Below are positions 3,900-13,118 of a stretch of DNA of 37,129 nt, one piece after another; the first letter of the stretch is position 1; each line of letters opens with the position of its first letter. The notes below the pieces were generated by a model. It was not told the DNA's origin and ran no database searches. It saw nothing but the letters and a program-made list of their open reading frames with translations. The stretch is taken from assembly GCF_020515525.1 (NCBI RefSeq), contig NZ_JAIYEP010000043.1:1-37129 (forward strand). Reading direction: 5' to 3'. The position numbers and the translations under genes were made by a program. The stretch is from Rhodococcus yananensis. GTDB taxonomy: Bacteria; Actinomycetota; Actinomycetes; Mycobacteriales; Mycobacteriaceae.

Positions 3900-3917
3900 G
3901 TAACATAGAGATGTTAC
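3900..3917. promoter_or_regulatory. Inverted repeat in the fadE5 promoter region
   Basis: GTAACAT and ATGTTAC are perfect 7-base arms separated by AGAG. The repeat partly overlaps the TetR-type site at 3914-3927. It could be a second operator or an extended part of the same one; its different core argues for a different binding protein or a chance palindrome. Confidence 0.35.
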
Positions 3918-3927
3918 CGACGAGTAA
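3914..3927. promoter_or_regulatory. Putative TetR operator upstream of fadE5
   Basis: TTACCGACGAGTAA is an imperfect palindrome 59 bases before the fadE5 start. It aligns with the site in the fadA2/fabG4 gap (reverse complement TTACCCGCGAGTAA) and the one before the tetR gene (reverse complement TTACCGTAGAGTAA), giving TTACCSNNGAGTAA. An extra half-site, CGAGTAA, lies at 3897-3903. Confidence 0.6.
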
Positions 3928-3986
3928 TAACTTGGGCGGTACTTGCAAGCGACTGGACCGCACCGCTACGGGAGACACGCACAGAC

Positions 3987-5822
3987 ATGGGCCATTACAA
4001 GAGCAACCTCCGCGACCTCGAGTTCAACCTCTTCGAGTTCCTGCAGATTCAGAAGGTCCTCGACGCCGGCAAGTTCGGCGACCTCGATGAAGAGACCGCG
4101 CGCGGCATCCTCGCCGAGGTCAAGGCCCTCGCCGAGGGTCCCGCTGCCGAAGCCTTCGCCGACACCGACCGCAACCCGCCGGTCTTCGACCCCGAGACCC
4201 ACACGGTGTCGATCCCCGAGGGCTTCAAGAAGGCATTCCGCGCCTGGTGGGACGCCGGCTACTGGTCGATGGGCATCCCCGAGGACATCGGCGGCACCGA
4301 CGCACCGCGCAGCCTCCTGTGGGCAGCCAACGAGATGATGCTCGGCGCCCAGCCCGCCGCCTTCATGTACGCCGCGGGCCCGGCCTTCGCGGGTGTGCTC
4401 TACGACAACGGCACCGACGAGCAGAAGAAGTGGGCCGCCACCTGCGTCGAGCGCGGCTGGGGTGCCACCATGGTCCTCACCGAGCCCGACGCCGGTTCCG
4501 ACGTCGGCGCGGGCCGTACCAAGGCCGTGGCGCAGGACGACGGCAGCTGGCACATCGAGGGCGTCAAGCGGTTCATCACCTCCGCCGACTCCGACGACCT
4601 CTTCGAGAACATCTTCCACCTCGTCCTGGCACGCCCCGAGGGCGCCGGCCCGGGCACCAAGGGCCTGTCGCTGTTCTTCGTCCCCAAGTTCCACTTCGAC
4701 TTCGAGAAGGACGAGCTCGGCGAGCGCAACGGCGTGTTCGTCACCAACGTCGAGCACAAGATGGGCCTGAAGGCATCCACGACCTGCGAACTCACGTTCG
4801 GTGGCCACGGTGTTCCCGCGAAGGGCTGGCTCGTCGGTGAGGTCCACAACGGCATCGCGCAGATGTTCGACGTCATCGAGCACGCCCGCATGATGGTCGG
4901 CACCAAGGCCATCGGCACGCTGTCCACCGGCTACCTCAACGCGCTCGAGTACGCCAAGGAGCGCATCCAGGGCGCGGACCTGACGCAGATGTCCGACAAG
5001 TCCGCACCGCGCGTGTCGATCATGCACCACCCCGACGTGCGCCGGTCGCTGGCGATGCAGAAGGCGTACTCCGAGGGCCTGCGCGCCGTGTACCTCTACA
5101 CGGCCGCACACCAGGACGCGTCGGTCGCCGAGCAGGTGTCGGGTGCCGACGCAGGTCTCGCGCACCGCATCAACGACCTGCTGCTGCCCGTCGTCAAGGG
5201 CTGCGGCTCCGAGCGTGCCTACGAGTACCTGAAGGATTCGCTGCAGACCCTCGGCGGTTCCGGCTTCCTGCAGGACTACCCGATCGAGCAGTACATCCGC
5301 GACTCGAAGATCGACTCGCTGTACGAGGGCACCACCGCCATCCAGGCGCAGGACTTCTTCTTCCGCAAGATCGCCCGTGATCGCGGTGTCGCGCTCGCGC
5401 ACGTCGCCGGTCGGATCAAGCAGTTCCTCGAGCGTGACGACGCCGACCAGCGCCTGAAGAAGGAGCGCGCGCTCCTGAACACCGCACTCGAGGACGCGCA
5501 GACCATGGTCGCGACGCTCACCCAGTTCCTGATGGGTGCGCAGGAGAACCCGACCGAGCTGTACAAGGTCGGCCTCGGCTCGGTCCGTTTCCTGGAGTCC
5601 TTCGGCGACCTGCTCATCGGCTGGCTGCTGCTCGAGCACGCCGAGATCGCGCTCGCCAAGCTCGACGCGGGCGCCGACGCCAAGGACAAGGCGTTCTACG
5701 AGGGCAAGGTGGCCGTCGCGTCGTTCTTCGCGAAGAACGTGCTGCCGGAGCTCACCGTCTCGCGGGGAATCATCGCCGGTGTCGACCTCGACATCATGGA
5801 GCTCGACGAAGCGGCGTTCTGA
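3987..5822 (+). CDS. fadE5: Acyl-CoA dehydrogenase FadE5-like
   Basis: A 611-residue FAD-dependent acyl-CoA dehydrogenase catalysing the first, alpha-beta dehydrogenation step of fatty acid beta-oxidation. Length equals that of M. tuberculosis FadE5 as I know it. The catalytic base is E447 in IDSLYEGTTAIQAQD, the position reported for FadE5. Other visible elements are the N-terminal helical domain (YKSNLRDLEFNLFEFL, typical of this long subfamily), the FAD/substrate segment MVLTEPDAGSDVGA (162-175), and QTLGGSGFLQDYPIEQYIRD (420-439). The C-terminal extension beyond residue 460 is a helical domain typical of long FadE proteins. A GGGAGA ribosome site lies 11 bases before ATG 3987. It stands alone downstream of a TetR-type operator that is shared with fadA2/fabG4, which implies co-regulation. 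Broad chain-length use is known for FadE5; it is assumed here. Confidence 0.93.
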   Translation: MGHYKSNLRDLEFNLFEFLQIQKVLDAGKFGDLDEETARGILAEVKALAEGPAAEAFADTDRNPPVFDPETHTVSIPEGFKKAFRAWWDAGYWSMGIPEDIGGTDAPRSLLWAANEMMLGAQPAAFMYAAGPAFAGVLYDNGTDEQKKWAATCVERGWGATMVLTEPDAGSDVGAGRTKAVAQDDGSWHIEGVKRFITSADSDDLFENIFHLVLARPEGAGPGTKGLSLFFVPKFHFDFEKDELGERNGVFVTNVEHKMGLKASTTCELTFGGHGVPAKGWLVGEVHNGIAQMFDVIEHARMMVGTKAIGTLSTGYLNALEYAKERIQGADLTQMSDKSAPRVSIMHHPDVRRSLAMQKAYSEGLRAVYLYTAAHQDASVAEQVSGADAGLAHRINDLLLPVVKGCGSERAYEYLKDSLQTLGGSGFLQDYPIEQYIRDSKIDSLYEGTTAIQAQDFFFRKIARDRGVALAHVAGRIKQFLERDDADQRLKKERALLNTALEDAQTMVATLTQFLMGAQENPTELYKVGLGSVRFLESFGDLLIGWLLLEHAEIALAKLDAGADAKDKAFYEGKVAVASFFAKNVLPELTVSRGIIAGVDLDIMELDEAAF

Positions 5823-5853
5823 TCCGCTGAACCTCGGGGTTCACAACCCTGAT

Positions 5854-5900
5854 ACGAGGCTCACAGCCCTGTCGGCCACCGGCAGCGCTGTGAGCCTCGT
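5854..5900. terminator. Strong hairpin after fadE5
   Basis: Perfect 13-base arms (5854-5866 and 5888-5900) enclose a 21-base loop. An outer pair, GGGTTCACA near 5837-5845 and TGTGAACCC near 5907-5915, nests around it. It lies between convergent fadE5 and the VanW gene, so it probably terminates both. No T-tract is present. Confidence 0.65.
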
Positions 5901-5949
5901 TCTTGTGCTGTGAACCCTTGTGCGGTGAACCTCTGGGGGGGGGCGCCGG

Positions 5950-12381: not shown

Positions 12382-12396
12382 CGATCGGGGGTCGGA

Positions 12397-12441
12397 CGGG
12401 TGTGTGCCGGGGCGCGATGGGGGCGTCCCGGCACACACCCG
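12397..12441. terminator. Perfect hairpin between htdX and the tetR gene
   Basis: Perfect 15-base arms (CGGGTGTGTGCCGGG and its complement) with a 15-base loop separate the convergent htdX and tetR genes. It probably ends transcription from both sides. No T-tract. Confidence 0.75.
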
Positions 12442-12454
12442 CCGGATCGGCCGA

Positions 12455-13063
12455 TCAGTGCGGCTGGTCCGACCGCTTCTTTCCGGCGAGGCCGCGCCAC
12501 GCGAGGTTCTCGAGCAGATCCGCGGCCCGTGTGACATCGATCTCGCCGCCCGCGACGCGGTCGGCGACGGCCTCACCCGCACCGACGAGCGCGACGGCCA
12601 TGATCGCGTAATCCGCGCCCGGTTCCGGCTCCCGCGTGCTGGATTCGAGCAGTCCCGCGGTGAGTTCGATGAGCTGGTCGCGACTGTTGCGCACCTGCCC
12701 GGCGAAGACCTGCTGCCCCAGCGCCTGGCGGTACAGCACCATCCACGAGGCGCGGTGCTGGTCGACGAATCCGAGGAACGATTCGAGGGCGACGCGTAGC
12801 TGTTCGCGGGGTGCGAGCGTCGGGTCGCCGGCCGGGGTGAGTGCCTCGACGAAGCGCTGTCCTTCACGGGTGATGCAGGCGGCGAAGAGTTCGTCCTTGG
12901 ACCCGTAGTACAGGTACAGCATCGGCTTCGAGATCGAGGCGCGAGCCGCGATGGCATCCATCGAAGTGTCGTGGAACCCGTTCTCGGAGAACACCTCCAC
13001 TGCGGCATCGAGCATCTGCTGTTCGCGAACCGCACGCGGCAACCGCTTCGTTCCGCCTGCCAT
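12455..13063 (-). CDS. TetR/AcrR-family transcriptional regulator
   Basis: A 202-residue TetR repressor. The N-terminal DNA-binding domain is clear: LPRAVREQQMLDAAVEVFSENGF, then the helix-turn-helix TSMDAIAARASISKPMLYLYYGSKDELF (about 35-62). The ligand domain (about 65-195) is variable; no ligand can be named, though acyl-CoA is plausible from context. ATG 13063 is well placed after a palindromic region. The palindrome 34 bases upstream matches those before fadE5 and between fadA2 and fabG4, so I infer that this protein represses itself and those genes. M. tuberculosis has a TetR gene (Rv0238) next to lpqI in the same order, supporting orthology. Proof would need binding data. Confidence 0.9.
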   Translation of the reverse strand: MAGGTKRLPRAVREQQMLDAAVEVFSENGFHDTSMDAIAARASISKPMLYLYYGSKDELFAACITREGQRFVEALTPAGDPTLAPREQLRVALESFLGFVDQHRASWMVLYRQALGQQVFAGQVRNSRDQLIELTAGLLESSTREPEPGADYAIMAVALVGAGEAVADRVAGGEIDVTRAADLLENLAWRGLAGKKRSDQPH

Positions 13064-13090
13064 GTCTCCTCCAGGAACTACTACTCAGAA

Positions 13091-13118
13091 CATCTCCTTA
13101 CTCTACGGTAAGGAGATG
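13091..13118. promoter_or_regulatory. Operator-like palindrome upstream of the tetR gene
   Basis: Perfect 11-base arms (CATCTCCTTAC and GTAAGGAGATG) flank a 6-base centre. The core CTTACTCTACGGTAAG (13097-13112) is the same type as the fabG4 and fadE5 sites. Lying in the 78-base lpqI-tetR gap, it may act as the tetR autoregulatory operator, as an lpqI terminator, or both. Confidence 0.6.

What the first reader, a model, noticed from the sequence alone, without database searches (positions are those of the whole stretch)
3914..13112. One palindrome at three promoters suggests a local TetR-controlled acyl-CoA regulon
Sites upstream of fadE5 (3914-3927), in the fadA2/fabG4 gap (10112-10127) and upstream of the tetR gene (13097-13112) share TTACCSNNGAGTAA (in one orientation), each imperfectly palindromic. 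All three lie 33-59 bases before a start codon. The regulator's own site has the longest arms. Together they imply that the linked TetR protein represses itself, fadE5, fadA2 and fabG4-htdX, joining dehydrogenase, thiolase, reductase and hydratase in one switch.
Basis: partly seen in the sequence, partly recalled or inferred. Interest (0 to 1): 0.75.

Follow-up and report, generated by a model that had tools for sequence, protein, structure and literature searches.

The report
Conserved switch for fatty-acid breakdown genes
A short mirror-image DNA sequence sits at the promoters of fatty-acid-burning genes and of a neighbouring repressor-like gene, and its conservation in related bacteria suggests that a little-studied regulator helps to control how this group burns fat.

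Summary
Exact TTACCSNNGAGTAA sites lie at 3914-3927, 10113-10126 and 13098-13111; within 2 mismatches 6 are found against 0.6 expected.

In 80 named Rhodococcus/Nocardia-type loci, all 158 TTAC-n6-GTAA matches in 1.55 Mb fall within 250 bp upstream of tetR (75), fadA2/fabG4 (71) or fadE5 (12). Altered spacers give 0-2. In 30 chosen genomes of 11 genera, fadE5 has the exact core in 30 of 30.

The switch is not local. The motif also precedes etfB (30 of 30 within 1 mismatch) and etfD (28 of 30) and, in some relatives, further lipid genes.

The linked TetR is a FasR paralogue: 93 bits against a cut-off of 330, while the genome has a separate true FasR. An orthologue has a solved structure, 3f1b.

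Caveat: fabG4 sites have C..G flanks, fadE5, etfB and etfD mostly G..C or G..T. fadE5 may answer to a second regulator. Best reading: the TetR represses itself and fadA2/fabG4-htdX, probably released by acyl-CoA; fadE5 belongs to a wider regulon, less surely under the same protein. Binding, repression and ligand are untested.

The parts
12455..13063 (-). TetR-family regulator, FasR paralogue (202 aa); gene position matches Rv0238 of M. tuberculosis (equivalence recalled)
   Evidence: TetR_N and TetR_C_46; FasR model 93.2 bits, below its 330 cut-off; PDB 3f1b at 6e-104
13091..13118 (.). tetR operator: core 13098-13111 within an 11-bp-arm perfect palindrome
   Evidence: exact TTACn6GTAA upstream of tetR in 75 of 80 named loci
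10113..10126 (.). operator shared by the divergent fadA2 and fabG4-htdX promoters (C..G flank class)
   Evidence: fabG4 70 of 70 and fadA2 71 of 71 named loci with enough upstream sequence; 25 of 30 exact and 26 of 30 within 1 mismatch over 11 genera
3914..3927 (+). fadE5 main operator (G..T flank)
   Evidence: exact TTACYNNNNRGTAA in 30 of 30 genomes; TTACn6GTAA in 12 of 18 named loci
3890..3903 (+). second, weaker fadE5 operator (2 mismatches)
   Evidence: second site 18-40 bp away in 25 of 30 genomes
3987..5822 (+). fadE5-like acyl-CoA dehydrogenase (611 aa)
8754..10067 (-). fadA2-like thiolase (437 aa)
   Evidence: NF006740 acetyl-CoA C-acetyltransferase, 771 bits against cut-off 539
10178..11524 (+). 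fabG4-like 3-oxoacyl reductase (448 aa)
   Evidence: NF006110, 678 bits against cut-off 410
11524..12381 (+). htdX-like MaoC dehydratase; its ATG overlaps the fabG4 stop; no operator of its own
   Evidence: PF01575; overlap TGATG; 0 of 71 upstream regions with a site

Best explanation
The linked TetR protein is a catabolic paralogue of FasR that binds a 14-bp palindrome, TTACYNNNNRGTAA, as a dimer. It binds its own promoter and the fadA2/fabG4 gap, overlapping the core promoter, and so represses itself, fadA2 and fabG4-htdX. Long-chain acyl-CoA entering its C-terminal domain, which belongs to the same Pfam family as that of FasR, would open the dimer and release the DNA. fadE5 and fatty-acid genes elsewhere (etfB, etfD and others) carry the same core and probably belong to the same response, with flanking bases tuning affinity. 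Shown: the sites, their conservation, a -10-like element overlapping them, and the kinship to FasR. Inferred: binding, repression, ligand, and that one protein serves both flank classes.
For: All 158 matches in 80 named loci (1.55 Mb) fall in the three promoters; spacers of 4, 5, 7, 8 give 0, 2, 1, 0. In 30 chosen genomes of 11 genera: fadE5 30 of 30 exact; within 1 mismatch fabG4 26, etfB 30, etfD 28 of 30; controls 0 of 397 gene-body windows and 27 of 1760 shuffled upstreams. Of the 16 TetR-type matches in the own genome (15 loci scanned), only the window gene has an exact site; one other, L417, has a 1-mismatch site. A TANNNT -10-like element overlaps the operator in 74 of 75 tetR, 70 of 70 fabG4 and 10 of 12 fadE5 sites. 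FasR releases DNA on binding long acyl-CoA (PMC7382501, passages) and its domain PF21943 is shared. The 25-mer co-crystallised with FasR holds two partial matches to this motif. Rv0238 is given as essential on glycerol only (PMC8648758, passage), as a repressor of lipid use might be.
Against: The left flank base splits by promoter: C in 28 of 29 fabG4 sites but in 2 of 30 fadE5, 4 of 30 etfB and 1 of 28 etfD sites (Fisher p below 1e-10), which suits two proteins. Of 13 g2 (Mycobacterium-like, inferred) genomes the tetR self-site is exact in 2, 1 mismatch in 3, 2 mismatches in 4 and not found in 4, while fabG4 and fadE5 sites are exact in 8 of 8 g2 genomes. With 1 mismatch the genome-wide excess over the backward control is modest: 228 against 167 in 17 genomes, below the control in 4 of 17. 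The paper on Rv0158 reports lower fabG4 and htdX in its mutant (PMC10501769, passage), so other regulators act on them. No binding or expression data were available here.
Confidence: 0.62

Rival explanations
1. Two related regulators share one core: the linked TetR binds the C..G class (tetR, fadA2/fabG4), while another protein, perhaps FasR or an unidentified factor, binds the G..C class (fadE5, etfB, etfD, and isocitrate lyase and an acyl-CoA dehydrogenase in Mycobacterium-like genomes).
For: Flank classes stay with their promoter across 11 genera. Paired sites 18-40 bp apart: fadE5 25 of 30, etfD 16 of the 28 with a site, fabG4 3 of 30, etfB 0 of 30. The 25-mer co-crystallised with FasR contains TACTGGCGAGT.
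Against: The tetR self-site has C on the left in 74 of 75 named loci but G..C flanks in family f15, so this TetR may accept both; etfB is C..G in three g5 genomes. No other TetR relative scanned in the own genome carries an exact site, and the FasR locus L410 has none within 1 mismatch.
Confidence: 0.32
2. The fadE5-class sites are GlnR boxes and answer to nitrogen, not to lipids.
For: GTTAC-n6-GTAAC formally fits the M. smegmatis GlnR consensus AC-n9-AC (PMC3662644, passages); GlnR represses icl in M. smegmatis (PMC7886694, passages).
Against: The sites are palindromic and sit at beta-oxidation genes. The main text of the 53-site GlnR paper holds no 'etf', 'fadE' or 'acyl-CoA dehydrogenase' (its supplementary target list was not seen). 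The reported icl GlnR box, CCAAT-n6-GAAAC, is a different sequence.
Confidence: 0.04
3. Chance or structural palindromes without a regulator.
For: Individual genome-wide sites at 1 mismatch are close to background.
Against: Conservation at three promoters in 80 named loci and 30 genomes with near-zero controls; the only Rfam match in the window, F6, lies elsewhere.
Confidence: 0.02

Closest known systems
FasR (Rv3208), TetR-type activator of fas-acpS, PDB 6o6n/6o6o/6o6p
   Same: Next PDB relative after 3f1b (1.2e-19); same C-terminal Pfam family PF21943; its operator oligo resembles the motif.
   Different: The window protein scores 93 against the FasR cut-off of 330, while the same genome holds a true FasR with 368. 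FasR activates synthesis; this one sits at breakdown genes and probably represses.
PDB 3f1b, TetR-like transcriptional regulator
   Same: Orthologue, 349 bits over 198 residues.
   Different: The listing names no function; its Rhodococcus origin is recalled. None of the 15 papers listed contains '3F1B', which is not proof that none exists.
Rv0238 of M. tuberculosis (equivalence recalled from gene order)
   Same: One of five TetR regulators conserved in all mycobacteria analysed, M. leprae included (PMC4482099, passages).
   Different: No operator or regulon for it was seen in the listings and passages consulted; supplementary files were not readable.
FadR of Bacillus (TetR-type, acyl-CoA-responsive repressor of beta-oxidation; function recalled)
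   Same: Same design and pathway.
   Different: 42 bits against the family cut-off of 200.

Membership tests
TetR-family regulator | TetR_N DNA-binding domain above the gathering score | tested here: met
   PF00440, 65.7 bits against 24
TetR-family regulator | short palindromic operator at its own promoter (common, not universal) | tested here: met
   75 of 80 named loci; exact in only 2 of 13 g2 genomes
FasR equivalog NF053731 | score above 330 bits | tested here: not met
   93.2 bits; the genome's own FasR scores 368.3
FasR equivalog NF053731 | activates fas-acpS | not tested
   the fas promoter was not located
Bacillus FadR equivalog NF053878 | score above 200 bits | tested here: not met
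   42.2 bits
acyl-CoA-responsive repressor of beta-oxidation (works like) | operators at beta-oxidation genes overlapping the core promoter | tested here: inconclusive
   operators at such genes: met; overlap rests on a TANNNT element, transcription starts not mapped
acyl-CoA-responsive repressor of beta-oxidation (works like) | acyl-CoA binding releases DNA | not testable with these tools
   only a shared domain family with FasR
GlnR box (considered for the fadE5 site) | AC-n9-AC | tested here: inconclusive
   formally fits by reading, but the palindrome and the targets differ

The most novel reading that the evidence does not exclude
A FasR twin is the master repressor of fatty-acid burning across the order: one duplicated acyl-CoA sensor switches synthesis (FasR) and its twin switches breakdown (fadE5, fadA2/fabG4-htdX, ETF, EtfD, glyoxylate entry), both reading variants of one operator, so synthesis and breakdown are set by the same signal.
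Probability: 0.35. Interest if true: 0.8.

Novelty: new member of a known kind. Interest (0 to 1): 0.6.

Why it matters
Who controls beta-oxidation in mycolic-acid bacteria seems poorly known, although fat is a major food of many of them (background knowledge). An operator, a target list and a candidate protein with a solved orthologue make the question directly testable in harmless laboratory strains. The link to ETF and EtfD would tie fatty-acid use to its respiratory outlet in one regulon.

Tried and rejected
A purely local regulon: rejected, because conserved sites also precede etfB and etfD. htdX as a direct target: rejected (0 of 71). Rv0158 as the binding protein: its reported motif is unrelated (PMC10501769, passages). 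A second TetR gene with such a self-site: looked for in two genomes; none exact besides the window gene, but L417, L418 and L422 have 1-mismatch sites and the tetR of G130 (L032) has none within 1 mismatch; six G130 matches had no locus and were not scanned. The Mondino 2013 FasR paper is not held. MceG-like control is not general: 15 of 26 genomes within 1 mismatch, and at least one of these (G007) rests only on a stretch far upstream.

Weak points: one search aligned 13 of the 30 loci. Of the 75 places listed for six relatives, 54 were fetched, chosen by eye, with 6 regions of the own genome; the clusters are therefore lower bounds and have no control set. One search was a capped listing, and 20 regions were chosen from it by eye. 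The 30 genomes were chosen by me from genomes that have the TetR or lie in the same genus. The fabG4 match of G083 starts at residue 76, so its upstream region is not the true one. Within clusters usually one member was annotated; names such as AlkB, MceG, EtfD, SCP2 and WhiB rest partly on recall. The Fisher counts were typed.

Full report
Observation. The three sites are present at the stated places and are exact matches to TTACCSNNGAGTAA. Distances to start codons are 33-59 bp as stated, and the tetR site has the longest arms, an 11-bp perfect palindrome at 13091-13118. Six matches within 2 mismatches stand against 0.60 expected.

Setting. The window is contig C43 of a 4.25 Mb genome. Its TetR is 88-90% identical to those of the four closest Rhodococcus loci. 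The order lpqI-like, tetR, htdX, fabG4, fadA2, fadE5 recalls the Rv0237-Rv0244c region of M. tuberculosis (recalled). Rfam finds the F6 sRNA at 8626-8682, just past fadA2.

Conservation in named genomes. An alignment of 13 TetR orthologues fetched 80 named loci (the cap) from Rhodococcus, Prescottella, Rhodococcoides, Antrihabitans and Nocardia. TTAC-n6-GTAA lies within 250 bp upstream of tetR in 75 of 80, of fabG4 in 70 of 70, of fadA2 in 71 of 71, of fadE5 in 12 of 18, and of htdX in 0 of 71, the denominators being loci with the gene start and enough upstream sequence. The tetR misses are L053, L054, L055, L067 and L080; the fadE5 misses are L068, L085, L108, L125, L127 and L131. A recount assigns every one of the 158 matches in 1,551,149 bases to tetR (75), fadA2/fabG4 (71) or fadE5 (12). 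The same halves with spacers of 4, 5, 7 or 8 give 0, 2, 1 and 0; four other palindromic patterns give 7, 0, 6 and 2.

Conservation over the order. In 30 chosen genomes of 11 genera the numbers with TTACYNNNNRGTAA in 400 bp upstream are: fadE5 30 exact; fabG4 25 exact, 26 within 1 mismatch; etfB 23 exact, 30 within 1; etfD 21 exact, 28 within 1. MceG-like: 4 exact, 15 within 1 of 26 genomes. tetR in the 30 loci: 8 exact, 21 within 1. Controls: 0 of 397 gene-body windows within 1 mismatch; 27 of 1760 shuffled upstreams within 1, 1 of them exact.

A wider regulon. Of 75 places listed for six same-genus relatives, 54 were fetched, with 6 own regions, and clustered together with the earlier own loci by neighbouring protein. 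The largest cluster, an acyl-CoA dehydrogenase (annotated on one member), spans all 7 genomes looked at. Others include a saccharopine-dehydrogenase-like reductase, a methyltransferase, a FadD6-like ligase, a MceG-like ATPase, a secretory LIP lipase, SDRs, crotonases, an AlkB-like protein of Pfam FA_desaturase, a PHA synthase and isocitrate dehydrogenase, in 2 to 6 genomes each. In g2 (Mycobacterium-like, inferred) genomes G..C-class sites also precede isocitrate lyase and an acyl-CoA dehydrogenase. In six f15 genomes a variant, GTTACNCNNGNGTAAC with 1 mismatch, gives 60 matches against 3 for the backward control; in L267, L269, L270 and L277 it lies between tetR and a divergent SCP2-like gene (name by recall). 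Against this: the one-mismatch pattern gives 228 against 167 for the control over 17 genomes and is below the control in 4; the pattern gives 113 against 67 over 8. Single genome-wide sites should not be trusted without orthologue support.

The regulator. It has TetR_N and TetR_C_46 domains. The FasR model gives 93 bits against a cut-off of 330, while another gene of the same genome gives 368 and shares TetR_C_46. The closest solved structure, 3f1b, is an orthologue; FasR structures come next. In the listings and passages seen, no operator or regulon for this regulator appeared (searches; passages of PMC4482099, PMC12687858, PMC8648758 and PMC11250799); supplementary files and subscription papers were out of reach. 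PMC8648758 names Rv0238 among regulators essential only on glycerol (passage).

Two flank classes. fabG4 sites have C on the left in 28 of 29; fadE5 in 2 of 30, etfB in 4 of 30, etfD in 1 of 28. fadE5 (25 of 30) and etfD (16 of the 28 with a site) have paired sites. Either one protein tolerates both flanks, or two related proteins share the core. The FasR co-crystal 25-mer (PMC7382501, passage) holds two partial matches to the motif (2 mismatches each, one outer base unknown; as good a best score in 413 of 20000 shuffles), so FasR is a candidate for the second class. GlnR fits formally but poorly in targets.

Mechanism. A TANNNT element overlaps the operator in 74 of 75 tetR, 70 of 70 fabG4 and 10 of 12 fadE5 sites, which suits repression by blocking RNA polymerase; transcription starts were not mapped, and the simple promoter scan found one weak candidate at fadE5, 3878-3906. 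Release by long acyl-CoA is inferred from FasR (PMC7382501, passages).

Verdict. A real, deeply conserved operator; the linked TetR is its most likely reader at its own promoter and at fadA2/fabG4; fadE5 belongs to the same wider response, but its reader is uncertain.

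Noticed in passing
window 8626-8682 (-): F6 sRNA (Rfam RF01791, 58.8 bits), known from M. tuberculosis, lies just past the end of fadA2.
   Followed up: no
window 3900-3917: Inverted repeat GTAACAT-agag-ATGTTAC bridging the two fadE5 operators.
   Followed up: partly
G000:C49:26742-28574: A second fadE5-like dehydrogenase, 70% identical, in the same genome.
   Followed up: no
L315, L285: etfD-like and etfB promoters of the own genome carry exact sites, two of them at etfD 25 bp apart.
   Followed up: yes
L390, L391, L393, L394, L395, L396, L402: G..C-class sites before an acyl-CoA dehydrogenase and isocitrate lyase in Mycobacterium-like genomes (L390 and L394 annotated).
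   Followed up: partly
L267, L269, L270, L277: In family f15 the tetR orthologue is divergent from an SCP2-like gene, with GGTTAC..GTAACC between them.
   Followed up: partly
L162, L185, L198: A recurring site in three relatives, in L162 near a WhiB-like gene (name by recall).
   Followed up: no
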